From the NCBI RefSeq assembly GCF_017163705.1, contig NZ_JAFIWB010000010.1, positions 1 to 64,000 of the forward strand: a stretch of DNA of 64,000 nucleotides, written 5' to 3'. Below are positions 5,604-51,548 of the stretch, one piece after another (the first letter of the stretch is position 1; the number at the start of each line of letters is the position of its first letter). Both the position numbers and the translations under genes were made by a program. The notes below the pieces were generated by a model. The model was not told where the DNA came from, ran no database searches, and saw only the letters and a program-made list of their open reading frames with translations. This stretch comes from Xanthomonas bonasiae. Its GTDB lineage: Bacteria > Pseudomonadota > Gammaproteobacteria > Xanthomonadales > Xanthomonadaceae.

Positions 5604-5714
5604 GGCATGGTCTCCCGGTGGAGGCGGCAGTGTAATCGGCGGGCGCGGGGTTTCGGGGTGGGGCCGAGCGGCGGCGGTGGGAATGGTACGGTCCCGGCGC
5701 CTGTCGGTAGCGCG

Positions 5715-6295
5715 CGTCGGGACTGAAGTCCCTCCCACAGAGGGATCGAGGCGGCCCCACGCTTGGTCGATAGAGCGGCTGGAGCCGACAGCCTGAAACC
5801 ACCGAAAGTCCCTACCTGGACGAGTCGCCCGGCAGGAGCGTCTTTGCGAAGGGCGCGAGCGCGGCGGCGAGGTTCGGCCCCGATACCGCGTCGGTAAAGC
5901 ACGTCGGGACTGGAGTCCCTCCAACAGGTGGGTCGAGGCGGCCTGATGCCTGGTCGATAGAGCGGCTGGAGCCGATGGCCTGAAACCGTCGAAGCCCCTG
6001 ACTGGACGCGCCGCCCGCAGAGCGTCTTTGCGAAGGGTGCGAGCGCGGCGGCGAAGATGGGTTCCGACGCATTGTCGGTACAGCGCGTCGGGACTGAAGT
6101 CCCTCCCACAGGGGGTCGAGGCGGCCTGATGCCTGGTCGATAGAGCGGCTGGGGCCGATGGCCTGAAACCGCCGAAGCCCCCGCCTAGGCGCGCCGCCCG
6201 CAGAGCGTCTTTGCGAAGGGCGCGAGCGCGGCGGCGAAGATGGGTTCCGAGGCATTCTCGGTATAGCGCGTCGGGACTGAAGTCCCTCCCACAGG
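5715..6295. repeat. 184-bp tandem repeat, 3.1 copies
   Basis: A unit beginning CGTCGGGACTGAAGTCCCTC recurs at 5715, 5902, 6086 and (partial) 6269, so the period is 183-187 bases. Each unit contains the short palindrome GGGACT-GAAGTCCC, then a block with TCGATAGAGCGGCTGG, GCCTGAAACC and GAGCGTCTTTGCGAAGGG. The copies are clearly diverged. They fill the space between the 5' end of the MFS exporter and the 3' end of the transglycosylase/mutarotase gene. Long open frames here are by-products of the repeats. This is not a CRISPR array: the units are too long and there are no unique spacers. Confidence 0.9.
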
Positions 6296-6426
6296 GGAGC
6301 GGATCGGCCTGGGCCGGTCTATTCCTTCTAGTGCCGGTCGATCTGGTAGCGGTCGATGACGCGGTTGCGACTGATGGCCAGAGGCCGCCGCCTATCCGCA
6401 GCGAACCCTCGCGGCAGCGCGCGCCG

Positions 6427-15000: not shown

Positions 15001-15935
15001 ATGCCCAGCTGCAGCTCGCGCAATTCGCCGACGCTGCGGCGCAGGGCCATCAACTCGGCGTAGTGCTGCCGCGCCGGGACCAGCGTCTCCACCTGGCGCC
15101 GCGCGGTCACCACCGCATGGTGGGCGCCGTCGAGTTCGGCGAAGTCGTCGACCAGGCGGTCGGCGGCCTCGAAGGTGCGCGGCTCGTCGAGCATGAAGCT
15201 GCGCAGGAACGCATTGAGATCGCCCAGGTTCTTCGCCGACTGGGTCTTGTGCAGCAGCCGCAGCGCCATCTCGTTGCCGATGCCGAGCAGGTGACGGAAG
15301 CGCTCGGCATAGCCGGCGAAGCTGTCGAAATGGTGCACCTCCTCGCCCAGGCGCTGCTTGAGCCGGCGCAGGTCCAGGTCGAAGCCGTCCAGCTCGGCGG
15401 CCACGTCGAAGCCGCGCGGCGCCACCATGTAGTGCTTGCGCACGTCGGCCGCGGCGGTGCCGCTGCCGGCGATCCAGAACAGGCGCACCAGGCTCACCGC
15501 CTGGCCGTGCGCGTTGCGGTATTCCAGCGCCAGCGCCGACCAGGTCGCGCCCTTGCGCAGGTACTGGGTGGCGATCTCGCCCGAGGCGCTGTCCTGCTGG
15601 TCGGCCCAGGCGCCGCGCACGTACGACACCAGGCTGCGGTCGCGGCCGCTGCGCTCGGCCTCGCGCGCGGCGGCGTTGAAGTCGACGATGCTCGGCGGGG
15701 TCAGCAGCGCCGACATCGCATCGAGCAGGGTCGACTTGCCGGAGCCGGAGCGGCCTACGAACAGGAAGCCCTTGTCGGCGACCGGCACGTCGGTCAGGCC
15801 GTTGAAGGTGCCCCAGTTGTGCACCTGCAGGCGGCGCATGCGGTATTGCTGCGCGCGCTGCTCGGCCAGCGTGTCGGCGAACAGCGACGGCGCGGGGACG
15901 GATGCGGACGCAGACGGATCGGACAGGGACGTCAT
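12048..15935 (-). CDS. jetC: JetC/MksB-like SMC ATPase with basic C-terminal tail
   Basis: SMC-like ATPase of the Wadjet (JetC) / MksB condensin family, 1295 residues. Walker A GRSGSGKST is at 61-69. Long coiled coils surround a hinge-like globular region at about 470-690. The ABC signature SGGQRQ is near 1016 and Walker B AVVLDEAF near 1047. Such proteins load with JetA and JetB (kleisin complex) and extrude DNA loops; in full Wadjet systems they present small circular DNA to the nuclease JetD. Residues from about 1125 to the end are a Lys/Ala/Pro-rich, histone H1-like tail that is unusual for the family. No JetD gene follows; the next gene is a convergent transporter. The ATG overlaps the stop of a four-codon frame (Met-Ser-Thr-Arg), which suggests coupling. 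Confidence 0.9.
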   Translation of the reverse strand: MTSLSDPSASASVPAPSLFADTLAEQRAQQYRMRRLQVHNWGTFNGLTDVPVADKGFLFVGRSGSGKSTLLDAMSALLTPPSIVDFNAAAREAERSGRDRSLVSYVRGAWADQQDSASGEIATQYLRKGATWSALALEYRNAHGQAVSLVRLFWIAGSGTAAADVRKHYMVAPRGFDVAAELDGFDLDLRRLKQRLGEEVHHFDSFAGYAERFRHLLGIGNEMALRLLHKTQSAKNLGDLNAFLRSFMLDEPRTFEAADRLVDDFAELDGAHHAVVTARRQVETLVPARQHYAELMALRRSVGELRELQLGIDGYREQRRLALLDARLQELDTQDRGLAGEEGQRREALDNHEQKLAERETEQRAQGGERVEALERERGRVERERDERMRRRSQVEQACRQLGMGLAGSAAGFAEQVAQARALREGVAGDASALDEAIAERMAERREDERRFAAIRTEIDALHKAPSSIPAPMQALRARLCADTGLAEAALPFVGELMQVDEAQAAWRGAIERVLHGFAQSLLVDERHHATVAEWVNQTQLGTRLVYYRVRHNEALHSREPDPRSLLRKLQLRDHPYATWLRHELGRRFDYACVDSAAQLRNAERAITREGQLKHPGDRYEKDDRHAVGDRKRWLLGYDNRDKLKVYEREGQALAQRIAACDADVAALRKQRELDQGRQLAAHTLAERDWDEIDVAPKLQRLSDIAEQLLQLREGDTALRALGEQIAVARALRDQARRTYEDVRLERAQLGRERSRLQAQRETCAARVATAAITPAQAQGLDARLAALSPLSLDNLEAHLRSVERGLGEQLAQSHGQDARLGQQLLDCFRRYCQQWPEDSGDFTVSLASADDFLARLQRLESDGLPRHEGRFFDLLQTQSKNNLLALQRHTAEAHKAIKQRMDEVNASLEQVPFNRGTLLTIEVSDRRLLEVQEFQQQLREVLGHQQTEDRALAEAQFATLRTLVQRLGAQDAELRRWREQVLDVRQHVEFVGVELDAHSRAQVEIYRSGAGKSGGQRQKLATTCLAAALRYQLGGEDGELPRYAAVVLDEAFDKADNEFTALAMNIFENFGFQMVVATPLKSVMTLEPFIGGACFVEISGRHTSGVLLIEYDEQQHRLKLPERTRGDEPALHEAAPAQAARAQTVPAAPTVANVAAIAVARAAADVGSAASVPAATDIADAVHAPHGDKRRAAKRGTAAAVAAPGARSAEPTRSAKPAASGTLAKGGKAATSTKPVSARAAAKPATATAATKPAAAKPSAARRAAPERAAPPVKAPPPASKTKPPASPKARSRR

Positions 15936-16001
15936 CGGGTGCTCATCGGAAAATCGAGATCGCCAGGGCGCCTGGCGGTGGGCTGGGCGGGCCGGCGGTG
16001 G

Positions 16002-16026
16002 GTCGCGGCTGACGCCGCTCCTGCAG
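16002..16026. repeat. REP element between jetB and jetC
   Basis: A single copy of the genus palindromic repeat (GTCGCGGCTGACGCCGCTCC on the plus strand) lies directly after the jetB stop codon, inside the 91-base gap before jetC. Its position in an operon suggests a role in mRNA folding, or simple insertion. Confidence 0.8.
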
Positions 16027-16713
16027 TCACTGCGGGGCGTCCGCGGCCGTGCCTTCGCGCAAGCCGCGGTAGGCGGCGGCCAGCGCCTGCACGTCCTCCG
16101 CGGAGAACAGCAGTTTCAGCGCCGGCGACACCTCGTAGCGGTCCTCGCTGCCGCGCAGCTTGGACAGCAGGTGGTTGTCGCGCATCTTCGCGATCGCCGC
16201 CAGCACCCGCCGCGCAAAGCCCGCACGGTCGGTGGACACGTTCTTCTCGTACACCGACAGCACTTCCAGCAGCTGCGCCTCCTGCACCACCGCGCGTTCG
16301 CCGCGGGTGTCGGCTTCGGCCAGCTGCTGGCGCAGGAACAGCAGCAATACCGACTCGATGAAGGTCAGCGGCGCGGTGCGCAGCAGCGCCGGGGTCTCCA
16401 GCTCGGCGGTCTCGGCCTGGCGGGCGAAGGCCACGCCGCCGTCGCGGTCCAGCACCAGTTCCAGGAACAGTTCGCATAGCACCCGGCGCACCGCGGCCTC
16501 GTGGCGCAGCAGCGCCGGCCACAGCGGTCCGTGGCGGTAGGCGTCGATGCTCGGCCCGGACAGCAGCTGGCACAGCGCGCGGCGCGCCTCCAGCGGCAGG
16601 GTGCCGGTGTCGCCGGCGAACAGCTCGCTGCGGCCGTCGGCCTGGGTCGCGGCGGCGGCCGCGGGGTCGAAGCCGTCGGCGTCGCCGCCGGGCATATCGT
16701 CAGACCAGTTCAT
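16027..16713 (-). CDS. jetB: JetB/MksE-like subunit (DUF4194)
   Basis: Winged-helix 'kite' subunit of the Wadjet/MksBEF complex, 228 residues, DUF4194 type. After a disordered, acidic first 35 residues come helix-rich segments ([35 protein letters not shown]) and a basic C-terminal half ([25 protein letters not shown]) typical of this family. It starts 14 bases inside the end of jetA, so the two are translationally coupled. Its partner relationship with jetA and jetC is inferred from gene order and the family. Confidence 0.85.
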
Positions 16714-21289: not shown

Positions 21290-22180
21290 ATGAGCAACGC
21301 GTCGCATCGCGCGGACCCCCGGGCCAAATCCTGGGTCGAACGCCTGGACCCGTGGATTGCCGCCATCGTCAGCGCCGTGCTGCACCTGCTGATGTTGCTG
21401 CTGTTGCTGCTGGCCGACCCGCCCACCATGAGCACGCCGCAAGGCGCGGCCAGCGGCGGCCGGACCAAGGTGGACTTCATCGGCGCCACGCGCCAGCCGG
21501 TGCATCCGGCCAAGACGCCGCCCAGCCCCACCCCCGCGCAGAAGCCGGTCGCGGCCAAGAAACGGCGCGCCACTTCGCCGGTGCAATCCACGCTGGTCGC
21601 GCAGTCCGACCACCCGGTGCCGCCGCCCGATCCGGCCGCCACGGCCAGCACGCCAGCGCCGCCCGCGCCCACGCCCGCCGAGCAACCGGCGCCGCCGCAG
21701 CCGGACCCCGCCACGCAGCAGCAGGCCCAGGCCGCGGCCAGCGAACCCGAACCGACCCAGCGCCGCGAGACCTGGACCGGGCGGCCGCCGGGCGCGATCG
21801 ACCAGGACCTGGGCCCCAACGAGACCGGCCTGGTCCGCGACGGCGGCGGCCGTGGCGGGCGCCGCGGCGACCCCAGCGACGCCGGCCCCAGCATGGAACT
21901 GGGCGGCTACCTGGTCTATTACGACCTGCGCAGCGAAACCCTGCTGCGCGCCTGGATGGACCAGGGCATGAAGGAATTCTTCATCCTGCTGCCCGGCACC
22001 CAGTACCGCATGGCCTGCCCGCTGGAGATCGCGATGAAGCGCGGCTCCGGCAAATGCCGCGCGCTGCCGCCGGACTCCCCGGAACTGAAGGCCATCGGCG
22101 ACGCCCGCGAGGTCATCACCATGCTGCAGGTCTACAAGCAGGGCGAACTGGTCTGGCGCGGCCCGGGGCCGTACAAGTAA
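21290..22180 (+). CDS. Proline-rich single-pass membrane protein, TonB-like architecture
   Basis: Unrecognised 296-residue protein. It has a short basic cytoplasmic start, one membrane helix (residues about 22-41, AAIVSAVLHLLMLLLLLLAD), then a long Pro/Ala/Gln-rich periplasmic spacer (about 75-165), and a compact C-terminal domain (about 200-296) with two cysteines. This is the architecture of TonB/TolA energy transducers, but the C-terminal domain is not a TonB domain I can identify. The start at 21290 gives the helix at the expected distance. Repeats begin immediately after its stop. Function unknown; a cell-envelope role is inference from topology. Confidence 0.7.
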   Translation: MSNASHRADPRAKSWVERLDPWIAAIVSAVLHLLMLLLLLLADPPTMSTPQGAASGGRTKVDFIGATRQPVHPAKTPPSPTPAQKPVAAKKRRATSPVQSTLVAQSDHPVPPPDPAATASTPAPPAPTPAEQPAPPQPDPATQQQAQAAASEPEPTQRRETWTGRPPGAIDQDLGPNETGLVRDGGGRGGRRGDPSDAGPSMELGGYLVYYDLRSETLLRAWMDQGMKEFFILLPGTQYRMACPLEIAMKRGSGKCRALPPDSPELKAIGDAREVITMLQVYKQGELVWRGPGPYK

Positions 22181-22555
22181 GCCCCTCTCCCCTGGGAGAG
22201 GGATTGGGGCGAGGGTCCGGCGCGAAAGCGACTCACGGAGTTGGGTGCACGAGGCTGCGCCCGTACCCTCATCCGCCCCTGCGGGGCACCTTCTCCCGGT
22301 GGGAGAAGGAACAGCCTTAGCCCCTCTCCCCCCGGGAGAGGGGTTGGGGTGAGGGTACGGCGCGAAAGCGACTCGCGGAGTCGGGCGCGCAAGGCTTCGC
22401 CCGTACCCTCATCCGGCCCTGCGGGCCACCTTCTCCCGAGGGGAGAAGGAACCGCCTTAGCCCCTCTCCCCCCGGGAGAGGGGTTGGGGTGAGGGTCCGG
22501 CGCGAAAGCGACTCGCAGAGTTCGGGCGCGCAAGGCTTCGCCCGTCCCTGCATCC
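22181..22555. repeat. ~140-bp tandem repeat, 2.7 copies
   Basis: Units start GCCCCTCTCCC at 22181, 22320 and 22460. Each holds one palindrome (CCTCTCCC-GGGAGAGG), the link GGGTGAGGGT-CGGCGCGAAAGCGACTC, and a second palindrome (CCTTCTCCC-GGGAGAAGG). The third copy is truncated. The same family, in reverse orientation, fills 51125-51548, and fragments occur between and inside recB and recD. They begin one base after the upstream gene stops and probably fold into strong RNA stems. Confidence 0.92.
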
Positions 22556-22912
22556 GGCGTTGCTGCACGGAGACGACAGCGCTTCCACCCCGATGCGCAG
22601 TGCAGCAACTCGAAACGTTCGCTCACCCTCCGCAGCGATGCCGACACCTGAGCGCGCCAGGCAATGCGCACGCGCGTGTCGCCGCGCTCCCCGCATACCT
22701 ACCGCCACTGGGCCAGTGCCTTTTCGCCGCCGCCATCGATCAGCACATGCAAGGTGAATGGAAGCGTGCACGAGGTCACGCGCCATCACGCTTCATTTGC
22801 AATTGTCCATCGACCTTGTTGATAGAGTCGCCGCGCGTCCCCGGCAGCGGCCCACCTATGCAGCGTGGCCCACCGCGACGTCTGGAGTAATTCATTCAAT
22901 AGGAGGTGTCAC
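22556..22912. other. Intergenic region without recognised gene
   Basis: No frame here has a recognisable product or good start. The last part contains the ribosome site AGGAGG (22901-22906) of the next gene and a comparatively AT-rich stretch (22795-22830) where a promoter would fit. Confidence 0.5.
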
Positions 22913-41418: not shown

Positions 41419-43449
41419 TTAGAACAATGCGCCTTGGAGGGGGAACGGCTGGCCTTCTGTTTGAAGTGTTGACGACGGCGGTGCAGAAACCTGTTCCACC
41501 CCACCCAAGCGCCACGCCAATCCCGAGATCCGCGCGGCATGCCTTGCCAGCGCGCCACGCAACACAGCCTCGCTGGCGGCCAGGTGCAGGCTCTGCCGCG
41601 CGCGGGTGATGCCGGTATAGACCAGTTCGCGGCTGAGCACGCGAGCGTCGCGGGTGGGCAGTTGCAGCCAGACGTCGTCGAACTCGCTGCCCTGCGCCTT
41701 GTGCACGGTCATGGCGAAGGCGCTTTCGTGCGCGGGCAGTGCGGCGGGGTGGAAGCCGCGGACCTGGCCGTCGCCCTCGCCTTCGAACCAGCCCACCAGG
41801 GCGCCCTGCGTATCTCTGAGGCAGATACCGACGTCGCCGTTGAACAGGCCGTGGCGGTAGCTGTTCTCGGTGATCAGCAGCAGGCGGCCGTGGAACCAGG
41901 GCGAGGCCGCGCCCAGGCGGCGCGCGCCGGCGCCGCTGTCGGCCAGCAGTTGTTCGATGCGGGCGTTGAGGCCGCGTGCGCCTTGCGCGCCGGCGCGTAC
42001 GGCGGTGAGCAGGCGCAGGCGGGCGGCGTCGCGCAGGGCGGCCGCGGGATCTTCGGCGTCGGCCAGGGCGCGCCAGTGCGCGAGCAGGGCGTCGCGGCGG
42101 GTGGCGAGCGGGTCCTCGCTGTCTTCGTGGAAATGCACGCCGGCCAGTTCGCCGCTGCGCAATAGGGCGAGCGCGGTGTCGGCGTCGCCGGCGCGTACGG
42201 CGTCGGCCAGTGGCGCGAGTTCGAAGCCCTGCGCCTGGCGGTAGCCGCGCAGCAGGTGCACGCGGTGGCCGGCGAGTCCGCCGCTGCTGTGCGTGTCGCT
42301 GGGGGTATGGCCGAGCAGCGGGTGCAGCGCTTGCGCGTCGTCCGGCTGCAGGGCGTCGCCGGGGCCGGCGGCCTGCAGGATGGCGGCGAGCACGTCGCCG
42401 GCTTCGACCGAGGGCAGCTGGTCGGCGTCGCCGAGCAGGATCAGTTGGGTGCCGTCGGCGACGGCTTCGACCAGTTTGCACATCAGCGGCAGGTCGACCA
42501 TCGAGGCTTCGTCGACCACGATCAGGTCGAACGGCAGCGGGTTGTCGGAGTCGTGGCGGAAGCGCGGCAGGTCGGGGATGACGCCGAGCAGGCGATGCAG
42601 CGTGCTGGCGCCGGCGGGTAGCGCGGCGGCCAGGGCCGGGTCGATGCCGTGGTCGAGCGCGCGTGTCACCGCCGCGCGCAGACTTTCGGCCATGCGTTCG
42701 GCGGCGCGGCCGGTGGGAGCGGCCAGGGCGATGCGCGGGGCGGTGGCCGCGCTGGCCTGCGCTTGCGCGATGCGCAGCAACAGCAGGCGCGCGATGGTGG
42801 TGGTCTTGCCGGTGCCGGGGCCGCCGGTGACCAGCAGCAGGGCGCGGCGCAGGGCGAGTGCGGCGGCCTGGGCTTGGCGGTCGGTGGGGTGGTCGGGGGC
42901 GGACGTACCCTCGCCCGCGCTTCGGGCACCCTCTCTCCCACGGGGACTTCCTTCGGTCGCCGATGGGAGAGGGGAAGCGGCTGCGTTTGGAAACAGCTGC
43001 GCGAACAGCGGAGCGAGCGTAGCGACGTCGAAGGCGGGCAGCGGTTGCGCGGCAAGGCGGCGCAGGCCTTGCGCGAGGCGGCGCTCGTATTCGCGGTAGC
43101 GGCGCAGGTAGAGCAGGCCGTGTTCCAGCACCAGCGGGCAGTCGGCGGCCGCCGGCTCCTCCGGCGCGGGCTGGGCGATCCAGCGCGAGGCGGCGAGGAC
43201 GCGTTGCCAGTCGGTGTGGTCCGGGAGTTGCGGCGGCGGGCCGTCGCGTGGGTCGAGCAGGACGTTGGCGTGGGCGGGATCCAGGCCGGCTTGGCCGCTG
43301 GCGACGGCCAGGGAGGCCAGTGCGGCGCCGGCCAGGACCAGGTCGGGGGTTTCTGCGTCCAGGCGGCTCAGGGTTTGGGCGAAGGCGTGGTCGAGCGTGC
43401 GCAGGGTGCCGCTGCGGTGGAGGGCGGCCAGGAGGTTGGGCTGGTTCAC
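41419..43449 (-). CDS. recD: Exodeoxyribonuclease V subunit alpha
   Basis: RecD, the 5'-3' helicase subunit of RecBCD, which processes double-strand breaks and regulates Chi recognition. 676 residues, with Walker A GGPGTGKTT near 213, Walker B VVDEASMVD and the C-terminal motifs TVHKAQGSEFDDV and YTGITRARQ. The start is GTG at 43449, which overlaps by four bases the TGA of the mini-gene before it. Residues about 159-182 (PSATEGSPRGREGARSAGEG) are encoded by an inserted copy of the dispersed repeat, in frame, between the N-terminal domain and the helicase core. It is the last gene of recC-recB-recD. Confidence 0.93.
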   Translation of the reverse strand: MNQPNLLAALHRSGTLRTLDHAFAQTLSRLDAETPDLVLAGAALASLAVASGQAGLDPAHANVLLDPRDGPPPQLPDHTDWQRVLAASRWIAQPAPEEPAAADCPLVLEHGLLYLRRYREYERRLAQGLRRLAAQPLPAFDVATLAPLFAQLFPNAAASPLPSATEGSPRGREGARSAGEGTSAPDHPTDRQAQAAALALRRALLLVTGGPGTGKTTTIARLLLLRIAQAQASAATAPRIALAAPTGRAAERMAESLRAAVTRALDHGIDPALAAALPAGASTLHRLLGVIPDLPRFRHDSDNPLPFDLIVVDEASMVDLPLMCKLVEAVADGTQLILLGDADQLPSVEAGDVLAAILQAAGPGDALQPDDAQALHPLLGHTPSDTHSSGGLAGHRVHLLRGYRQAQGFELAPLADAVRAGDADTALALLRSGELAGVHFHEDSEDPLATRRDALLAHWRALADAEDPAAALRDAARLRLLTAVRAGAQGARGLNARIEQLLADSGAGARRLGAASPWFHGRLLLITENSYRHGLFNGDVGICLRDTQGALVGWFEGEGDGQVRGFHPAALPAHESAFAMTVHKAQGSEFDDVWLQLPTRDARVLSRELVYTGITRARQSLHLAASEAVLRGALARHAARISGLAWRLGGVEQVSAPPSSTLQTEGQPFPLQGALF
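42904..42974. repeat. Dispersed repeat inserted in frame within recD
   Basis: CGTACCCTCGCCC followed by CTCTCTCCCACGGGGACTTC and GATGGGAGAGGGG matches the repeat at the recB end (43824-43893) and the 140-bp repeat families. It adds about 24 residues to RecD just before the Walker A region without breaking the frame. Confidence 0.8.
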
Positions 43450-43619
43450 GGGGTGGGCGCTCCGTGGGCGGACGTACCCTCACCCCAACCCCTCTCCCGG
43501 GGGGAGAGGGGCTCGAGCGCGGCGCCGGCGGACAGGGCGTCGACGGCTTTGAAGGCGTGGTCGAGGGGACTTAGCGTGCCGCTGCGATGGAGGGCGGCTA
43601 GGAGGTTGGGTCGGTTCAC
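43446..43619 (-). CDS. Mini-gene: RecD N-terminus joined to RecB-like/repeat tail (copy nearer recD)
   Basis: A 57-codon gene. Residues 1-16 (MNRPNLLAALHRSGTL) repeat the RecD start almost exactly; residues about 26-40 (VDALSAGAALEPLSP) match the C-terminus of RecB; the last ~17 (GWGEGTSAHGAPTP) come from the dispersed repeat. GTG start at 43619 overlaps the TGA of the previous mini-gene, and its own TGA overlaps the GTG of recD. It therefore arose by tandem duplication of the recB/recD junction. No function is known; it may only keep ribosomes moving from recB to recD. Confidence 0.7.
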   Translation of the reverse strand: MNRPNLLAALHRSGTLSPLDHAFKAVDALSAGAALEPLSPRERGWGEGTSAHGAPTP

Positions 43620-43804
43620 GGGGTGGGCGCTCCGTGGGCGGACGTACCCTCACCCCAACCCCTCTCCCGGGGGGAGAGGGGCTTGAGCGCGGCGCCGGCG
43701 AGCTGAGTGTCGGCGGCTTCGACCTGGCTCTGGGCGAAAGCGTGGTCGAGGGTGCGCAGGGTGCCGCTTCGGTGGAGGGCGGCTAGTAGGTTGGGTCGGT
43801 TCAC
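43616..43804 (-). CDS. Mini-gene: RecD N-terminus joined to repeat tail (copy nearer recB)
   Basis: A 62-codon gene. Residues 1-25 (MNRPNLLAALHRSGTLRTLD and on) match RecD, then a short divergent stretch, LAGAAL as in RecD residues 40-45, and the repeat-encoded tail shared with RecB and the other mini-gene. GTG start at 43804 overlaps the recB TGA (GTGA), and its TGA overlaps the start of the next mini-gene. No domain is complete, so an enzymatic role is excluded; a coupling relay or simple duplication debris are the options. Confidence 0.7.
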   Translation of the reverse strand: MNRPNLLAALHRSGTLRTLDHAFAQSQVEAADTQLAGAALKPLSPRERGWGEGTSAHGAPTP

Positions 43805-46800
43805 GGGGTGGGGGCTCCGTGGGCGGACGTACCCTCACCCCAACCCCTCTCTCCCACGGGGACTTCCTGCGGTCGCCGAGGGGAGAGGGGCTCGAGCGGG
43901 GCGCCGGCGAAGAGGGCGTCGACGGACGCGACCAGGGCGGGGTCGAAACGCCAGGCGTGGACGCCCGGCGAGGGGTCGCGGGTGGCGTCCAGGCCACGGC
44001 AGAACAGGTAGCGCACGCCGCCGAAGTCGCGGGCGTAGTCGTAGGCTTCGCCCAGGCGGAAACGCAGCCAGCGGTGCAGCGCGACGGTGTAGATCAGCGC
44101 CTGCAGTTCGTATTCGCTGTGCGCCATCGCCCGCGCCAACGCGTCGGGGTCGTAGCTGGGCAGGCGGTTGGATTTGTAGTCGAGCACGTACCAGCGCCCG
44201 TCGTGCTGGTAGGTGAGATCGATCAGGCCGGTCATCAGGCCTTCCAGGCGCTGGCGCGCGCCGAACGCCTGGCGTTCGCCGACCACGCCGAAGCGGTGCA
44301 GCAGCGCCAGCAGCGCATCGACCCGGGTGGGGCGCATGGCGAAGTGGAATTCCATTTCGTTGCGGCGTTGCGGTTCGGGCACCGCGGCCAGGTGGGTGCC
44401 TTCGGGCAACGCGACGGTCAGGGTGTGGCCGACCAGGGCGGTGAGCATGGCCGCGCCATCCTCCAGTTCGTCCTGGGCGTAGCCGCCGCGTTGCAGGGCT
44501 TCGAGCAGTGCCGCGGTCTGCCCGTCCGGCGCCGGCTGGCCGGGATGCCAATCGCGCCAGGCGGCGAAGTCGCAGCGTTCGAACACGTCGTGCATGGCCA
44601 CGCCGAAACGGTTGCCGGTGAAGCGCCGGTCGAACGCTTCCACGTCCAGCGTCGTCGCGACGGCCTCGCTGGTGGACGGCTCGTCGCTGCCGCCGCTGCC
44701 GACCACGGTGGCGCTGGCCATCGGGTCGGCGGCGGCGCCGGCATCGGCATTGGCCAGCTGGGTGAAGCTGTACACCCACCACTCCGGCACGACATGCCGC
44801 TGCGGCACGCGCGCCGGCGGCACCTGGATCGCGTCGGCCAGCGGCAGGCGCGGCAGCGTGGCCGGCGGCGGTGTGGTGTCGATGGCGATCGCGCCCTCGC
44901 CTGCGGCGGCCTGCAATGCGTCCAGGTCGCCGACCATCGCCGCCAGCGCGGTGCGCTCGTGCTGGTGGAAGGGGCCGGTGGCGATCCACAGTGCGTGCTC
45001 GGCGCGGGTCAGGCCGACGTAGAGCAGGCGCGCGTCCTCGGCGCGCTGTTCCTGTTTCCACGCGGCCTCGGCGGCGCTCCAGGCCGGGTCGTCCTTGCCC
45101 GTGTTCCAGTGCAGCTGGCGGCCGAGCGGCGGCGCGTGCACGACGCAGTGGCGGCCGGCGCCGCGGTCGCTGCGGCCGATGCCGACGTAGGGCAGGAACA
45201 CCAGCGGATACTCCAGGCCCTTGCTCTTGTGCAGGGTCACGATCTGCACCCGGCGCGCGTCCGATTCCAGGCGCAGCTGCTGGGTCTCGTCGTTGTCGTC
45301 GGCATTGGCGATGCGCCGCGACAGCCAATCGACCAGTCCGTGCGGGCCGAGCGCGCGGGTGTCGGCTTCCTGCAGCGTTTCGGCCAGTTGCAGGTAGTTG
45401 GTCAGCCGGCGCTCGCCATCGACCAGCGCCAGCAGGCGCTGCGCGTGCGCGGCGCCGAGGTCGCCGATCAATGCCAGCGGGCCGCCGCGCTGCCAGCGCT
45501 CGCGCCAGTCCAGCGCCTGCTGTTGCCAGCTGCGGTGCCGATCGCCGTTGTGTTCCAGCGCGGCGATCGCCGCGGCGTCTTCGCCGATCAGCACCGTCGC
45601 CAGCGCCGCGCGCAGGCGGCTGTCGTCGCCCGGATCGAGCAGCGCCTGCAGAATGGTTAAAAGCTCCAGCGCCTCATCAGTCGCAAATATGCTTTTTTTG
45701 CCAGCCACCACCGCGGGAATGCCAATCGCGCCCAAAGCCTGTTGAATACGCGTGGCTTGCTTATGCTCGCGCACTAGCACCGCAACGTCGCTAGCCTGCA
45801 CAGGACGACCTTCAATAGTTGCCTCGCCAGCGCGGCCATCAGCGAGCCAGCCATGGATTGCAGCTACACAGGCATCGGTGCACATCTCCTGTGAAAGTCC
45901 CGATTTCCAGGTAGGTCTGCTGCTAGGAGATTTCTTGGATGCCGTCGCAGCAGCTGGCGCTAATTCGGCAGGTTGCGGCGCGCGCCACAGGGTCAGCGCC
46001 GGCGCGGTGGCGCCGTTGCGCTGCAGCTCCGCGTCGTGGCGCTTGCTGCCGGGCTGCACCGGATGGAAGGCGATGCCGTCGGTCAGGAACGCCTGCGCAT
46101 AGCCGGCCTGCGCGTACAGCGCATCGATCGCCGCCAGCAGCACGGGGCGCGAGCGGAAGTTGTGGCCGAGCGGCGGCGCCGGTTCGGCATCGGCGGCCGC
46201 GGCCAGGTAGGTCTGCACGTCGCCACCGCGGAAGCCGTAGATCGCCTGCTTGGGATCGCCGATCACGAACAGCGCCGGTTCCAGCCCCGCCTCGCGCGCC
46301 AGCGCGCCTTCGCCGAACACGTTGGAAAAGATCGCCCACTGGCGGTCGTCGGTGTCCTGGAATTCGTCCACCAGCGCGATGGCGTATTGCGCGCGCAGCC
46401 GCCGCGCCAGCGCTTCGGCCTGCGCACTGTCGGGCCGCAACGCGTGCGCGACGCCATCGACCAGATCGTCGTAGGTCTGTACGCGGCGCTGGCGCTTGAG
46501 CAAGGCCAGCCGCTTCACTGCATCGCCGCGCAGCGCGTGCAGCAGGCGGATGCGGCGCCTGGCGCGCGCTTCTTCCAATCGCGCCAGTGCGGCCAGATAG
46601 CCGTCGATCTCGTGACTCATCGGCGAGGCCGGCGTGCGCCCGACGAATTTCTTGTTGGTGCCGGACGCCAGTTCCGCTGCCGTGAGCTTGATCAGCTTGG
46701 CGTGCGGCGCGAGGCCCGCCGCAGGCGCGGCGGCGAAGCCGTCGCACCAATGCCAGAGCGATGCCAGCCATTCCGGCTTGTAGCTGACCTTGCTCAACAC

Positions 46801-47655
46801 GCCGTCTTCGATGGCGGCGGCGATCGCGTCGAAGAATGCGGTGCCGTGCGCGTGGAACGCGGCGGCGAGCGCGGCGGCCGCGTCCTGCACCTGCTGCGTG
46901 GCCGCGGCGACATCGTCGGCCAGCACCGGTGCCGCCGGCAGCAGGTGCGGATGCCGCACCAGTTCGCGCAGGTCGCTGGCCAGCGCGTCGGGTCCGCCCG
47001 GCCATAGCGCGACCAGGTCGTCGGCCATCGCTGCGTCGGCGGCGCGCTGACGCCACAGGTCGGCGGCGACTTCGCCGAGCAGGTCGCGATCGTTGGCCAG
47101 CAGTTCCGGCGCGGCGAAGGTCTGGCCACTCTCCAGCGCGTGCTCGCGCAGCACGCGCGCGCAGAAGCCGTGGATGGTGAAGATGGCGGCGAGGTCGATT
47201 TCCTCCACCGCCTGCTGCAGGCGGCGGCGCAGGGCGGCGGAGGTTTCGTCGCTGGCGGCCAGGTGCGCGTCGAGGATCGCGCGGGTGAGAACGCCGTCCG
47301 GCGCTTCCTGCAGGAGCGGCTTCAGCCGCGACGGGGTGTCTGCGCTCCGGGACGGCGACAGGTCGTCCATGCTCTCTGTCGCGGCTGAAGCCGCTCCTAC
47401 AGGAAGCGGGGCAGCGTCGGGCACCAGCGTCGCCGCGAGCGCCAGGCGCTCGCGGATGCGCCGGCGCAGTTCCTGGGTGGCGGCTTCGGTGAAGGTGACC
47501 GCCAGGATCTGGCCGATGCGCAGGCCGCGCTCGACCACCAGCCGGGTGAACAGGGTGGCCAGGGTGAAGGTCTTGCCGGTGCCGGCGCTGGCCTCGATCA
47601 GGCGCACGCCGTGCAGCGGCAGGGTCAGGTACGGGTCGTGGGCGGGGGCGCTCAT
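43801..47655 (-). CDS. recB: Exodeoxyribonuclease V subunit beta
   Basis: RecB, the 3'-5' helicase and nuclease subunit of RecBCD; 1284 residues. Walker A EASAGTGKT is near residue 22; UvrD motifs include VTFTEAATQELRRR, LVDEFQDTD, IGDPKQAIYGFRGGD and VTLHKSKGLEYP. The C-terminal nuclease active site reads GLIDLTYQHDGRWYVLDYKSN. Two oddities: a REP doublet inserted in frame near residues 85-120, and a C-terminal tail (about 20 residues, PLSPRRPQEVP and on) encoded by the dispersed repeat. A lower-GC block at 45645-45975 interrupts the codon use. Start ATG 47655 overlaps the recC stop (ATGA); the stop overlaps the first mini-gene. Confidence 0.94.
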   Translation of the reverse strand: MSAPAHDPYLTLPLHGVRLIEASAGTGKTFTLATLFTRLVVERGLRIGQILAVTFTEAATQELRRRIRERLALAATLVPDAAPLPVGAASAATESMDDLSPSRSADTPSRLKPLLQEAPDGVLTRAILDAHLAASDETSAALRRRLQQAVEEIDLAAIFTIHGFCARVLREHALESGQTFAAPELLANDRDLLGEVAADLWRQRAADAAMADDLVALWPGGPDALASDLRELVRHPHLLPAAPVLADDVAAATQQVQDAAAALAAAFHAHGTAFFDAIAAAIEDGVLSKVSYKPEWLASLWHWCDGFAAAPAAGLAPHAKLIKLTAAELASGTNKKFVGRTPASPMSHEIDGYLAALARLEEARARRRIRLLHALRGDAVKRLALLKRQRRVQTYDDLVDGVAHALRPDSAQAEALARRLRAQYAIALVDEFQDTDDRQWAIFSNVFGEGALAREAGLEPALFVIGDPKQAIYGFRGGDVQTYLAAAADAEPAPPLGHNFRSRPVLLAAIDALYAQAGYAQAFLTDGIAFHPVQPGSKRHDAELQRNGATAPALTLWRAPQPAELAPAAATASKKSPSSRPTWKSGLSQEMCTDACVAAIHGWLADGRAGEATIEGRPVQASDVAVLVREHKQATRIQQALGAIGIPAVVAGKKSIFATDEALELLTILQALLDPGDDSRLRAALATVLIGEDAAAIAALEHNGDRHRSWQQQALDWRERWQRGGPLALIGDLGAAHAQRLLALVDGERRLTNYLQLAETLQEADTRALGPHGLVDWLSRRIANADDNDETQQLRLESDARRVQIVTLHKSKGLEYPLVFLPYVGIGRSDRGAGRHCVVHAPPLGRQLHWNTGKDDPAWSAAEAAWKQEQRAEDARLLYVGLTRAEHALWIATGPFHQHERTALAAMVGDLDALQAAAGEGAIAIDTTPPPATLPRLPLADAIQVPPARVPQRHVVPEWWVYSFTQLANADAGAAADPMASATVVGSGGSDEPSTSEAVATTLDVEAFDRRFTGNRFGVAMHDVFERCDFAAWRDWHPGQPAPDGQTAALLEALQRGGYAQDELEDGAAMLTALVGHTLTVALPEGTHLAAVPEPQRRNEMEFHFAMRPTRVDALLALLHRFGVVGERQAFGARQRLEGLMTGLIDLTYQHDGRWYVLDYKSNRLPSYDPDALARAMAHSEYELQALIYTVALHRWLRFRLGEAYDYARDFGGVRYLFCRGLDATRDPSPGVHAWRFDPALVASVDALFAGAPLEPLSPRRPQEVPVGERGWGEGTSAHGAPTP
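43824..43893. repeat. Dispersed repeat encoding the RecB C-terminal tail
   Basis: CGGACGTACCCTCACCCCAA followed by CTCTCTCCCACGGGGACTTC and GAGGGGAGAGGGG. Shorter relatives stand at 43472-43511 and 43636-43681 between the mini-genes, and a close match lies within recD at 42904-42974. These repeats are the likely substrates for the local duplications. Confidence 0.85.
47308..47402. repeat. REP doublet inserted in frame within recB
   Basis: CTGCAGGAGCGGCTTCAGCC (47308-47327) and the opposing GGCTGAAGCCGCTCCTACAG (47383-47402) form the same facing pair seen at 8761-8828. It is read through by RecB as about 36 extra residues (GAASAATESMDDLSPSRSAD and on) between the first helicase motifs. Confidence 0.88.
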
Positions 47656-50600
47656 TCGGCGTCCTCCTGCGCGCCGCGCCACTGCCGCCAGCTTTCGGCC
47701 AGCCGTGCCGGATCGAGCGCGCTGTCGGCGCTGCCGCGTTCCAGCAGGGAGTACAGCGTGTGGCTGGTGGCGGCGAACTCGGCGAAGCGCTGCGCATCGG
47801 CGAACGGGTCGCGCCCGCGATGCACCAGGCGCAATTCCGGCGTGGCCGCTTCGCTCCAGCCGAAGCTGGCCTGCCATTGCGCGGCGGCGTCCTTGATCGC
47901 CTTGTCGAGGTCGTCGTTGCGCGCGGTCTGGTAGTACTTCCAGCTGCTGTAAGGCGCGAACGCCAGCGGCGCCTGCAGGCCCTGCCGATACAGCCGCAGC
48001 AGGTCGGCCAGTGCCGCCTGCGCCTGTGCTGGCGGCAGCGGTTCAGCCGCGGTCGCGTCCATCGGATGCGGACCGAGGCCGTCGTCGTCTTCGAAGAAAC
48101 GCACGAACGGCGCGCGCTCGCCGGCGGCGCGCAGCAGCAGCCATTCCAGGCCGTGGCGGATCGCGGCGCGGCCGCCGATCGCACCGACCTGCACCCGGCC
48201 CACGCCGTTCGCATACCAGCCGGGCAGGCGACCATGCAGATCGACGCCGTCGAGGTGCAGCTGCAGCCGCTGCGATTGCGCCGGCGCGTCGCCACGCCAC
48301 TGCGCGAACGCTTCCGCGTACGGGCGCAGCTGGCGCAGGCGTTCGTCGAGCAGGCGCCGGCCCAGCGGCCCGGACGGCAGCAGCGCGCGCGCGCGCAGGC
48401 GGGCGTACAGCGCATCGGTGGCGCCGCTCAGCACCGCCTCCAGCACCTGTTGCTGCAAGTCGTGTTGCTCCAGCCCGCTGCCCGGCGCCAGCAACGGTTC
48501 CAGATCGCTGTCCTCGCCGGCCGGGTCGGGCAGGCGCATGCCCAGGCGATGGCGCAGGAACTGCCCAGCCGGATCGGCGAACAGGCGGCGCAGGTCGTCG
48601 ATCGAAACGCTGGTCGGCGCGGCCATGTCATCCGCGGGCAATGCCGCGGCGACCCAAGGCAGCAGCGCCTGGCGCTGTCCGGCCAGGCTGTCCACCGCCG
48701 GTCGCCACTGCCGGCGATAGCTGAAGCGGCGCGGATCGGCGCCGTCCTCGCCGAGCGCGCCGAACGCGGCGGCGGCGAACGGCTGCAGCGGGTGGCGCAC
48801 CACGAGGGTTTCGCTGGCCTTCGGGTCGGCGTGGTACTGCGCGGCGCTGGCCAGCAGTTCGCTGACCAGCACCGACGGCTCGCGCACGCTGCCGTCGCGC
48901 GCATCGGCGCCGAGATAGCTGAGGTAGAACACGTCCTGCGCCGAGGCGAACAGTTGCAGGAACAGGAAGCGGTCGTCTTCGCGAGTGGAGCGGTCGCCGT
49001 GGCGGCGGCGCTCGCTGCCCAGCTCGGCGGTGAGGCGGTTGAGCCCGGCGGCCGGGTCGCGGCGCGGGAAGTCGCCATCGTTCATGCCGAGCAGGCAGAT
49101 GACGCGGAACGGCAGCAGCCGCATCGGCACCATGCGGCCGAAGCTGATGCCGCCGGTGAGCAGCGGCGCGCGCGTGTCCGATTCGCCCAGCACCGCGGCG
49201 AAATGCGCGCGCACCACCTCGGCCGGCACCTTGCCGGCGTATTCGGCGCGCGCGGCGTCGCGGGCGAACTGGTCGATCACGCTGCGCAGCCGGTCCAGCG
49301 CGCGTTGCGCGCGCGGCGCCGACGGCGCCTGCGGGATCAACGCATCGAGCAGGCCGAGCAGGCATTCGCGCCAGTCGGCCGGGGCCATCGGCTCGGCCAG
49401 CATGGCCTGGTGGCGGTCCAGCACGCGCAGCAGCCGCAGCAGCGTATCCAGCGCCACCAGCGCGCTGCCTTCCAACTGCGGCCATGGCGCGACGCCGGCG
49501 ATATCGTCCTCGGCGCCGCTGGCGTGGCCGAGCAGCAGCCGGTCCAGCGCGAAGCGCCAGGTGTAGGCGTCGTCGGCGGGCGCCTGGTGGTGGAACCGGT
49601 GCGCCGCATCCAGGCCCCAGCGCACGCCGGCGGCGTGCAGCCAGCCGCGCAGGCGCTCCAGCCCGGTCTCGTCCAGCCCGGCGGCCTCGGCGATCGGCGC
49701 GCTGGCCAGCAGGTCGAGGATCTCGTGCAGGCCGAAGCGCGACAACGGCAGGCCGAGCAGGCTCAGGAACACTTCGGCCAGCGGCTCGCTGGCCAGCGGG
49801 CTGGCGTCGGCCAGCGCATACGGCAGCGCGTCGTCGCGGCCGTGGCCGCCGAACACCGCGTCCAGGTACGGCACGTAGGGATCGATGTCCGGCGACAGCA
49901 CCGCGATCTCGCGCGGCTGCAGCGGCGGGTCGAAGCGCGGGTCGTCGAGCAGCGCGCGCAGCTGGTCGTGCAGCACCTGCAGTTCGCGCAGGCGGGTATG
50001 GCAGGCGTGGATCTGCAGGCTGGGATCGGCCAGGTCCACCCGCGGCAACGGTGGCGACACGGCGGGCGCGCGGCGGTGGAACAGGTCGCTCTGCATGCGC
50101 CGCAACAGGCTGTCGCCGAGGCCGCCGTCGGCGAGTGGGCGCTGGCCGGAGGCCAGCGGATCGGCGTAGACCGCGATCTCGGCCAGCGGATGCACCACTT
50201 CGTAGTCGCCGACCAGCGCCATGAAATCGCGCCCGGCCGCGCCCCAGGCCTGCAGCAGCGGGTTTTCCTGCACCTGCGCGGCGAACAGGTCGACGGCGCC
50301 GTCCTCGCGGCGGCGCTGCCACAGCGTCTGCAGATCGCCCCAGTAGCCCTGGGTCGGCGTGGGCAGGTAGAAGTGCAGCGTGCCCACCCGCGCCTGGGTG
50401 GCGAGCACGCGCAGCACGTCGGGCGAGATGTTGAGGATGGCGAAGGCGAACAGCCGTTTCGGCAGGCCCTGCGGCAACGGGCCGTCGGGTCGCGCGTAGC
50501 GGTCCAGGTACTGGCCGATGCGGCGCGCGCGGTACTGGCGGCCGCTGGCGATCCTGCGCCACAAGCGCGCCTGTGGGTCGTCGGCGTCGGCGCCGCCTTC

Positions 50601-51065
50601 CCAGCGCAGCAGCCAGTCGCGGCGCCAGGCCTGGTATTTCTCGAACACGTTGCCCAGTTCGCCGGCCAGCGCCCAGGGCTTGAGCACGTCGCCGTCGACC
50701 AGGTAGCCGGCCAGCGGTGCCAGTGCCGCGTCGCTGCCGAGATCGGCCTGCAACGCCGCGTACAGCCGCCACTGCGTGGTGGCCATGTCCAGATCGTCGG
50801 CGGCCGCGCCGAGGTTGGCGTCCAGCGCGCGCGCGACGAATTCGCCGGGGGTGAGGAATTCCAGATTGGCGGCGACGCCGTGCGCGGCGGCCAGCGTGGA
50901 CTGCAGCCAGCGCCGCATCGCCACCTGCGGGATCAGCACTACCTCCGGCGCCAGCAGGTGCTGCTCCGGCACCGGCCGGCGCAGTTCCTCGGCGAGCAGG
51001 GCGGCCAGGGTATCCAGCGCGTTGGACGGGTACAGGCGGAAATCGGGCGCGGAAGGGGCGTGCAT
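47652..51065 (-). CDS. recC: Exodeoxyribonuclease V subunit gamma
   Basis: RecC, the Chi-reading subunit of RecBCD, 1137 residues with an inactivated helicase fold and a C-terminal nuclease-like domain. Recognisable blocks are LAPEVVLIPQVAMRRWLQ (near 42), FAFAILNISPDVLRVLA (near 200), EIAVLSPDIDPYVPYLDAVF (near 390) and LPFRVICLLGMNDGDFPRRD (near 660). The ATG at 51065 places these at normal distance from the N-terminus. It heads the recC-recB-mini-mini-recD chain, and every junction overlaps by four bases. The 140-bp repeat array lies 60 bases upstream of its start, where the promoter should be. Confidence 0.93.
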   Translation of the reverse strand: MHAPSAPDFRLYPSNALDTLAALLAEELRRPVPEQHLLAPEVVLIPQVAMRRWLQSTLAAAHGVAANLEFLTPGEFVARALDANLGAAADDLDMATTQWRLYAALQADLGSDAALAPLAGYLVDGDVLKPWALAGELGNVFEKYQAWRRDWLLRWEGGADADDPQARLWRRIASGRQYRARRIGQYLDRYARPDGPLPQGLPKRLFAFAILNISPDVLRVLATQARVGTLHFYLPTPTQGYWGDLQTLWQRRREDGAVDLFAAQVQENPLLQAWGAAGRDFMALVGDYEVVHPLAEIAVYADPLASGQRPLADGGLGDSLLRRMQSDLFHRRAPAVSPPLPRVDLADPSLQIHACHTRLRELQVLHDQLRALLDDPRFDPPLQPREIAVLSPDIDPYVPYLDAVFGGHGRDDALPYALADASPLASEPLAEVFLSLLGLPLSRFGLHEILDLLASAPIAEAAGLDETGLERLRGWLHAAGVRWGLDAAHRFHHQAPADDAYTWRFALDRLLLGHASGAEDDIAGVAPWPQLEGSALVALDTLLRLLRVLDRHQAMLAEPMAPADWRECLLGLLDALIPQAPSAPRAQRALDRLRSVIDQFARDAARAEYAGKVPAEVVRAHFAAVLGESDTRAPLLTGGISFGRMVPMRLLPFRVICLLGMNDGDFPRRDPAAGLNRLTAELGSERRRHGDRSTREDDRFLFLQLFASAQDVFYLSYLGADARDGSVREPSVLVSELLASAAQYHADPKASETLVVRHPLQPFAAAAFGALGEDGADPRRFSYRRQWRPAVDSLAGQRQALLPWVAAALPADDMAAPTSVSIDDLRRLFADPAGQFLRHRLGMRLPDPAGEDSDLEPLLAPGSGLEQHDLQQQVLEAVLSGATDALYARLRARALLPSGPLGRRLLDERLRQLRPYAEAFAQWRGDAPAQSQRLQLHLDGVDLHGRLPGWYANGVGRVQVGAIGGRAAIRHGLEWLLLRAAGERAPFVRFFEDDDGLGPHPMDATAAEPLPPAQAQAALADLLRLYRQGLQAPLAFAPYSSWKYYQTARNDDLDKAIKDAAAQWQASFGWSEAATPELRLVHRGRDPFADAQRFAEFAATSHTLYSLLERGSADSALDPARLAESWRQWRGAQEDAE

Positions 51066-51124
51066 GCGTGCGGCATTGTGCCGGATGCGCGGGTGCGGCG
51101 TCGTTGCGGGATGGTGGTGGCCTA

Positions 51125-51548
51125 GGGTTGTTCCTTCTCCCATCGGGAGAAGGTGACGCGCAGCGCCAGATGAGGGTACGAGCGCAGCCTCGTGTACCCA
51201 AACTCCGCGAGACGCTTCGCACCGGACCCTCACCCCAACCCCTCTCCCGGGGGGAGAGGGGCTAGTCGGCTGTTCCCTTCTCCCCTCGGGAGAAGGTGCC
51301 CCGAAGGGGCGGATGAGGGTACGGGCGCAGCCTCATGTACCCGAACTCCGCGAGACGCTTCGCGCCGGACCCTCACCCCAACCCCTCTCCCGGTGGGAGA
51401 GGGGCTAGAGCCGTTCCCTTCTCCCATCGGGAGAAGGTGCCCCGCAGGGGCGGATGAGGGTCCGGGCGCAGCCTCGTGCACCCAAACTCCGCGAGACGCT
51501 TCGCGCCGGACCCTCACCCCAACCCCTCTCCCGGTGGAGAGGGGCTAT
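51125..51548. repeat. ~140-bp tandem repeat, 3 copies (reverse orientation)
   Basis: Three units ending in GAGGGGCTAG (copies end at about 51265, 51408 and 51548; periods about 143 and 140). Each carries CCTTCTCCC-GGGAGAAGG, ACCCAAACTCCGCGAGACGC and CCCTCTCCC-GGGAGAGGG. They are the reverse complement of the 22181-22555 family. They separate the autotransporter stop from recC and would be transcribed as strong stems. Confidence 0.93.

What the first reader, a model, noticed from the sequence alone, without database searches (positions are those of the whole stretch)
43446..43804. Two mini-genes made of RecD N-termini form a GTGA relay between recB and recD
Seen directly: recB ends in a TGA overlapping a GTG (43804) that starts a 62-codon frame; that frame's TGA overlaps a GTG (43619) starting a 57-codon frame; its TGA overlaps the recD GTG (43449). 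Both small products begin with the first 16-25 residues of RecD and end with the repeat-encoded tail that also ends RecB. The unit duplicated is the recB/recD junction, and repeats flank each copy. Because both copies kept the overlapping stop/start, selection for coupled translation of recD is plausible. The mini-proteins could also be bound by RecB or RecC as partial RecD mimics. Mechanism and function are inference.
Basis: partly seen in the sequence, partly recalled or inferred. Interest (0 to 1): 0.75.

Follow-up and report, generated by a model that had tools for sequence, protein, structure and literature searches.

The report
Duplicated recB–recD junction forms ribosome relay
Between two DNA-repair genes this bacterium carries two tiny genes that look like stepping stones passing the ribosome along, and many relatives have similar stepping stones with quite different letters, which suggests that the open path to the next gene, more than the peptide, is what is kept.

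Summary
In a recC-recB-recD operon, two mini-ORFs (62 and 57 codons) lie between recB and recD; all three hand-overs are 4-nt GTGA overlaps. Each mini-ORF has a RecD-like head and RecB's repeat-derived tail.

It is not an assembly artefact: 7 of the 9 mini-bearing genus genomes are single-contig. Of 99 distinct family junctions, 32 carry 42 mini-ORFs; each mini-ORF's stop overlaps the next start by 4 nt (42 of 42), leading to recD. The other 66 readable junctions are direct or nearly so; none holds an unfilled insert. One record (L084) has frame breaks, probably sequencing error. The mini-ORFs' other two frames are open in 10 of 84 cases.

Peptides are mostly weakly constrained: pN/pS is near 1 in five of eight mini sets and 0.34-0.43 in three; recD's dN/dS is 0.18-0.31. 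recC-recB carries none (20 of 20 direct).

Best reading: tandem duplications across a coupled junction survive when ribosomes can still reach recD. Mycobacterial MIRUs are the closest precedent. The RecD-mimic idea is not supported in general, but constraint in the window's own lineage is not excluded. Translation itself is untested.

The parts
47652..51074 (-). recC; its stop overlaps recB's start as ATGA (control junction, no mini-ORF)
   Evidence: Pfam Exonuc_V_gamma and RecC_C; direct -4 junction in 20 of 20 genus genomes
43801..47655 (-). recB; C-terminal tail is encoded by the repeat element
   Evidence: Pfam UvrD-helicase, UvrD_C, PDDEXK_1; three genus genomes without the repeat (G012, G019, G001) end differently
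43845..43890 (-). part of recB's repeat-element variant; a 46-nt stretch shared with the in-frame insert in recD
   Evidence: direct repeat D4, 96%
43801..43804 (-). hand-over 1: recB TGA / mini-ORF 1 GTG (GTGA); GGAG with 10 nt spacing
43616..43804 (-). mini-ORF 1, 62 codons: RecD-like head plus RecB-like repeat tail
   Evidence: no Pfam hit
43657..43683 (-). palindromic core of the dispersed repeat (12-bp hairpin predicted in the mRNA) inside mini-ORF 1
   Evidence: in the MFE and centroid; the whole stretch is not unusually stable, z -1.7; dispersed in the genome
43616..43619 (-). hand-over 2: mini-ORF 1 TGA / mini-ORF 2 GTG (GTGA)
43446..43619 (-). mini-ORF 2, 57 codons: RecD-like head plus RecB-like repeat tail
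   Evidence: no Pfam hit
43487..43513 (-). palindromic core inside mini-ORF 2
   Evidence: z -1.3 for the 121-nt stretch
43446..43449 (-). hand-over 3: mini-ORF 2 TGA / recD GTG (GTGA)
41419..43449 (-). recD, 676 codons
   Evidence: Pfam AAA_19, AAA_30, RecD_N, UvrD_C_2
42883..42974 (-). same repeat family inserted in frame inside recD
   Evidence: D3, D4; RecD matches break at this place in G007, G019 and G001

Best explanation
recD is translated mainly by ribosomes that finish recB and restart at the overlapping stop/start (termination-reinitiation). A tandem duplication that spans this junction leaves recB and recD whole and puts a mini-ORF between them, starting with recD's head and ending with recB's tail. 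If a chain of open frames still leads from recB's stop to recD's start, ribosomes step recB, mini-ORF, mini-ORF, recD; if not, recD loses its ribosomes and the variant is removed. The mini-ORFs are therefore kept as stepping stones: the open path and the overlaps are conserved, the peptide little or not at all. Shown: anatomy, recurrence, conservation of the path and overlaps, mostly weak amino-acid constraint, repeated gain and loss. Inferred: that the ORFs are translated, that recD depends on coupling, and that loss of coupling is selected against.
For:: 99 distinct junctions, 32 with 42 mini-ORFs; mini-ORF stop to next start is -4 in 42 of 42; recB to first mini-ORF is -4 in 25 and an 11-nt overlap in 7. 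The 66 direct junctions (L084 left out) are -4 in 64, one -7, one +2 (recD taken as an ORF over 350 codons). Other two frames open in 6 and 4 of 42 (145 stops). (frame-blind): 13 copy spacings in the genus, 12 at 2 mod 3 and one at 0 mod 3 (fused, read through); same-strand spacings of the repeat elsewhere in the own genome are 13, 8, 13 at 0, 1, 2 mod 3 (34 spacings); pooled pN/pS 0.91 to 1.16 in five of eight mini sets; recD dN/dS 0.18 to 0.31; codon-position GC of mini-ORFs 0.73, 0.67, 0.76 against 0.79, 0.53, 0.89 in recD heads; head or tail in register in 25 of 42. Surviving frame changes keep the path: L045 (fused to recD), G017 and L072 (fused units), X. melonis; six gains or losses, four forced by supported branches; recC-recB direct in 20 of 20; 16 other relay-like junctions at 610 gene ends. 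Reinitiation falls steeply with distance (PMC10666635, passages); a short ORF may only deliver ribosomes (PMC12548453, passages).
Against: No expression data. Three of eight sets have pN/pS 0.34 to 0.43 (first 61-codon, 78-codon, G000/G002), near recD's, so peptide constraint is possible there. Sets are small and pairs within a set are not independent (the second 61-codon set rests on 8 differences). L084 (X. phaseoli) has frame breaks in recB's tail and recD's head; short gaps beside homopolymers suggest sequencing error, not proven. Seventeen of 42 mini-ORFs show no trace of junction origin and may be other inserts. Mini-ORFs are not independent: 28 of 42 fall in one cluster, joined partly by the shared repeat. 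Lengths of chained ORFs are 2 mod 3 by construction, so only the frame-blind spacings count as a test, and X. melonis copies include one spacing of 1 mod 3. SD-like matches of 4 nt or more precede recD in 18 of 32 relay junctions against 58 of 66 direct ones: dependence on coupling, or merely lineage. The hairpins are not unusually stable (z -1.3 to -2.1).
Confidence: 0.74

Rival explanations
1. The mini-ORFs are recent, neutral tandem duplications of a repeat-rich junction; frames are open only because there was no time to break them.
For: Tandem arrays of the same repeat occur elsewhere in the genome; copy number varies between relatives; two 73-codon units at another G017 junction are nearly identical.
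Against: X. maliensis units differ from each other at 25 to 34 of 120 nt with no frame break; frame-blind spacings in the genus are 2 mod 3 in 12 of 13, the other read through, while the repeat's spacing elsewhere is spread; the other frames hold 145 stops.
Confidence: 0.12
2. The mini-ORFs encode functional peptides, for example partial RecD mimics that bind RecB or RecC and modulate the enzyme.
For: In the window mini-ORF 1's head shows 6 silent and 1 amino-acid change on its own branch against recD; G000/G002 dN/dS 0.30, and 0.34 to 0.44 in the 78-codon set.
Against: RecD heads are in register in 15 of 42; five of eight sets have pN/pS near 1; lineages share the open path, not the peptide; no Pfam hit for the window's two.
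Confidence: 0.08
3. The number of relay steps is an adjustable gear (an extension of the best explanation, not exclusive of it): each hand-over loses a fraction of ribosomes, so copy number sets the RecD to RecBC ratio and is itself selected.
For: Steps vary from 0 to 3 and come and go at recB-recD but were not seen at recC-recB (20 of 20 direct).
Against: No expression or phenotype data; 9 of 18 genus junctions and 20 of 20 Lysobacter-named loci have none, so copy number need not matter.
Confidence: 0.15

Closest known systems
Mycobacterial interspersed repetitive units (MIRUs; Supply et al. 1997, as described in PMC12548453, passages read; the original not seen)
   Same: Short repeats with an ORF coupled at -4 to the gene behind, so that the insertion has little effect on expression; tandem arrays inside an operon (array detail recalled).
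   Different: MIRUs are described as mobile and inserted at start codons; here the full unit was found at one place among the matches scored in the own genome, is made of the local genes' own ends, and recurs at the same gene pair with different letters in different lineages.
Termination-reinitiation at 4-nt overlaps (PMC10666635, passages; PMC6728339, start of abstract in a listing)
   Same: ATGA or GTGA hand-over between genes for subunits of one complex.
   Different: Ordinary cases have one hand-over; here one to three extra ORFs are interposed.
Short upstream ORFs that deliver ribosomes (PMC12548453, passages; iraD leader in PMC5574718, search listing only)
   Same: The short ORF may act only to bring ribosomes to the next gene.
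   Different: Here it lies inside an operon between two long genes and, in 25 of 42 cases, shows descent from their junction.
In-frame palindromic repeat insertions in proteins (Rickettsia palindromic elements; recalled, no paper seen)
   Same: Dispersed palindromes read in frame within recB's tail and recD.
   Different: Here the repeat is also part of separate mini-ORFs.

Membership tests
recBCD operon (exonuclease V) | RecC, RecB and RecD domains in recC-recB-recD order | tested here: met
   Pfam hits for all three
Translationally coupled gene pair (-4 overlap) | 4-nt stop/start overlap at each hand-over | tested here: met
   3 of 3 in the window; in the family 67 of 74 hand-overs of mini-bearing junctions, the other 7 being 11-nt overlaps at the first step
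Translationally coupled gene pair (-4 overlap) | downstream translation depends on upstream translation | not testable with these tools
   needs reporter or ribosome profiling
MIRU | ORF in the unit coupled at -4 to the following gene | tested here: met
   feature as described in PMC12548453
MIRU | whole unit dispersed over many loci as a mobile repeat | tested here: not met
   full-length match only at recB-recD in the own genome; places outside recB-recD match over at most about 92 nt, mostly the 40-nt core (79 matches, 40 of 220 candidates scored; 82 matches, 40 of 193 scored)
MIRU | sequence relationship to mycobacterial units | not tested
   no MIRU sequence was fetched; different phylum

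The most novel reading that the evidence does not exclude
The recB-recD junction of Lysobacteraceae is a self-renewing translational gear: tandem duplication adds or removes ribosome hand-overs, each lowering RecD relative to RecBC, so that lineages tune end-processing between nuclease-rich and recombination-prone enzyme (the effect of low RecD is recalled) through peptides whose sequence does not matter.
Probability: 0.17. Interest if true: 0.82.

Novelty: new variant of a known kind. Interest (0 to 1): 0.64.

Why it matters
It offers a natural series (0, 1, 2, 3 extra hand-overs at one gene pair in related genomes) for asking how well ribosomes reinitiate in sequence and whether the RecD to RecBC ratio is under selection. 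It shows small ORFs whose open path is conserved while the peptide mostly drifts, which matters for annotation: such ORFs would be called genes or ignored. And it suggests a general route, junction duplication, by which small ORFs arise inside operons; a second case was met by chance at another junction of one genome.

Tried and rejected
Assembly artefact: rejected, since 7 of the 9 mini-bearing genus genomes are single-contig. The two genus genomes without a readable junction are drafts: G013's contig ends just after recB's GTGA and G015's begins just before recD, which fits a collapsed array but says nothing of copy number.

Known protein family for the window's mini-ORFs: none in Pfam; other libraries were not searched. 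Structure prediction was not run: short, largely repeat-derived peptides would give weak models.

Unit length 2 mod 3 as evidence: the lengths of chained ORFs are 2 mod 3 by construction, so I replaced this argument by the frame-blind spacings (G008's copy fell under that scan's identity threshold and gives no spacing; X. maliensis, X. melonis and four further loci were scanned beside the 18, with a lower threshold for the first two, and the four gave no second copy).

A first recC tree used wrong frames for several rows and was discarded; one search replaced it. One search stopped on a division by zero at its last-but-one set, so G011 (no silent difference) and G017 have no pooled ratio.

Controls that weaken the case: relays of any small ORF are not absent elsewhere (16 besides recB-recD at 610 gene ends in 864 kb), and some look like ordinary small genes. 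In one search the rows lying in recB-recD were not typed and four rows that align to recB's element variant were left out; itself scored 40 of 220 candidates.

Rows dropped before counts: L187 and L189 as duplicates; L053, L054, L055 and L036 as the same genomes as G005, G001, G012 and G015 (judged by equal contig lengths); L084 from the direct count. One search found no recB motif in 23 loci; of these L048 (one mini-ORF), L087 and L112 (direct) were read, and L190 and L191 (direct); the rest were contig edges or distant taxa and stay unread.

Literature: searches listed no report of this junction array that I recognised; I saw listings (at most 20 rows; 142 and 273 papers held the terms) and passages of three papers. 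The library lacks most subscription journals, so absence from print is not claimed.

Full report
What is there. The window carries a recC-recB-recD operon on the minus strand (Pfam). recC and recB are joined by ATGA. Between recB and recD lie two mini-ORFs of 62 and 57 codons, and all three hand-overs are GTGA. Each mini-ORF begins like RecD and ends like RecB: heads match recD in register at 0.89 and 0.82 nt identity, tails match recB's tail at 0.85, far above other registers. The unit is therefore the recB/recD junction itself, at spacings of 185 and 170 nt. Inside each unit sits a palindromic core predicted to form a 12-bp hairpin in the mRNA, though the stretches as a whole are not unusually stable (z -1.3 to -2.1). 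The core belongs to a dispersed repeat: the junction query has 79 matches in the own genome, self included, one of them full length (40 of 220 candidates scored; with the two mini-ORFs alone gives the same picture). The same repeat family also sits in frame inside recD. A GGAG precedes each of the three GTGs with 10 nt spacing.

Relatives. A genus search (20 genomes, own included) gave 18 readable junctions. Nine of 18 junctions carry 13 mini-ORFs (one a fused double), nine carry none, and all hand-overs are ATGA or GTGA. Seven of the nine mini-bearing genomes are single-contig. A scan blind to frame looked for copies of the recD start upstream of recD: 13 spacings, 12 at 2 mod 3, one at 0 mod 3 in G017 where the two units are fused and read through; no copy found lies outside an open path to recD (G008's diverged copy fell under the threshold). 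On a recC tree presence and absence need six changes, four of them forced by supported branches, so mini-ORFs come and go.

Family. With 80 named loci and a search of 101 genomes of the order (30 loci given), 99 distinct junctions could be read; 32 carry 42 mini-ORFs. They occur in loci named Xanthomonas, Pseudoxanthomonas and Luteimonas, and in one Stenotrophomonas (L048, read only); none of the 20 Lysobacter-named loci has one. Every mini-ORF stop overlaps the next start by 4 nt (42 of 42). recB's stop overlaps the first mini-ORF by 4 nt in 25 and by 11 nt in 7 (X. arboricola and close relatives). The 66 direct junctions are -4 in 64, with one -7 and one +2; recD was taken there as an ORF of more than 350 codons. 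Among these 98 no unfilled insert was found. X. maliensis (L056) has three 41-codon units without the dispersed repeat, much diverged from each other and from recD, all in frame. In L045 the mini-ORF appears fused to recD; in G017 and L072 units are fused with each other; in X. melonis (L079) copies stand out of phase (one spacing of 1 mod 3) inside one ORF that still runs to recD's start. In all of these ribosomes could still reach recD, so the path rather than each unit's phase seems to be kept. The one exception is L084 (X. phaseoli), with frame breaks in recB's tail and recD's head beside homopolymers, probably sequencing error.

Is the path selected? The other two frames of the 42 mini-ORFs are open in 6 and 4 cases and hold 145 stops. 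Taking 10 of 84 (0.12) as the chance that a frame is open, and the 10 sequence clusters as independent, the chance that all are open is about 6e-10; the independence is an assumption, and clusters were joined partly by the shared repeat. Spacings of the same repeat elsewhere in the own genome are spread over the three residues mod 3 (13, 8, 13 of 34). Duplication across the junction creates both overlaps by itself, and the length of a chained ORF is 2 mod 3 by construction; what chance does not give is the lack of copies that break the path.

Is the peptide selected? Pooled pN/pS is 0.91 (76-codon set), 0.95 (69), 1.03 (131), 1.02 (X. maliensis, copies within one genome) and 1.16 (second 61-codon, 8 differences), but 0.35 (first 61-codon), 0.43 (78) and 0.34 (G000/G002). 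recD's dN/dS in 13 pairs of the same loci is 0.18 to 0.31. Codon-position GC is nearly flat in mini-ORFs (0.73, 0.67, 0.76) against 0.79, 0.53, 0.89 in recD heads. In the window's own mini-ORF 1 six silent and one amino-acid change lie on its branch in the head, so constraint there is possible; mini-ORF 2 and the G002 and G017 heads show more amino-acid change. Overall the path is kept better than the peptide.

Controls. recC-recB, also a 4-nt overlap, is direct in 20 of 20 genus genomes. In 864 kb of three genomes (400 kb each of G017 and G011, plus the window) 610 gene ends gave 50 direct -4 pairs and 17 relay-like junctions, 16 of them not recB-recD; several look like ordinary small genes, and three contain what I take by eye for dispersed-repeat peptides. 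One, in G017 before an MMPL-family transporter gene (Pfam), is a second case of the same process: two nearly identical 73-codon units made of the next gene's head. So recB-recD looks like a hot spot of a more general event. SD-like matches of 4 nt or more are fewer before recD in relay junctions (18 of 32) than in direct ones (58 of 66), against 0.28 in shuffles.

Mechanism and precedent. Reinitiation after termination falls steeply with distance (PMC10666635, passages), so an insert of 355 nt as in the window should cut RecD unless it is translated. A review (PMC12548453, passages) describes MIRUs as apparently mobile repeats whose ORF couples at -4 to the next gene, which limits damage. The present array works like a MIRU but fails the dispersal test as a whole unit. 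In E. coli K-12 recB and recD overlap by 1 nt, so close joining of this pair is not confined to the family. Whether each hand-over costs RecD, and whether copy number is tuned, is open.

Noticed in passing
L154 (G017:C1:340001-360000), around G017:C1:344975-345515: Second relay of the same kind: a 34-codon ORF and two nearly identical 73-codon ORFs made of the next gene's head, linked by 4-nt overlaps before an MMPL-family transporter gene.
   Followed up: partly
window about 15932-16030, minus strand: A 32-codon ORF with a dispersed-repeat-like peptide (GAASAAT, by eye) linked by 4-nt overlaps between two longer ORFs.
   Followed up: no
window 5702-6297, 22180-22558, 51133-51547: Other tandem arrays (periods 183, 140 and 143); the latter two contain the same palindromic repeat as the recB-recD array.
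   Followed up: partly
L056 (Xanthomonas maliensis): Three 41-codon relay units without the dispersed repeat, strongly diverged yet all in frame.
   Followed up: yes
L079 (Xanthomonas melonis): Three junction copies before recD, not all in phase with each other, inside one 121-codon ORF that still ends at recD's start.
   Followed up: partly
L045 (Xanthomonas axonopodis DSM 3585): The mini-ORF appears fused in frame to recD, giving an 863-residue product.
   Followed up: partly
L207 (G013 contig end), L208 (G015 contig start): Both draft genomes break at the recB-recD junction, as if an array there was not assembled.
   Followed up: partly
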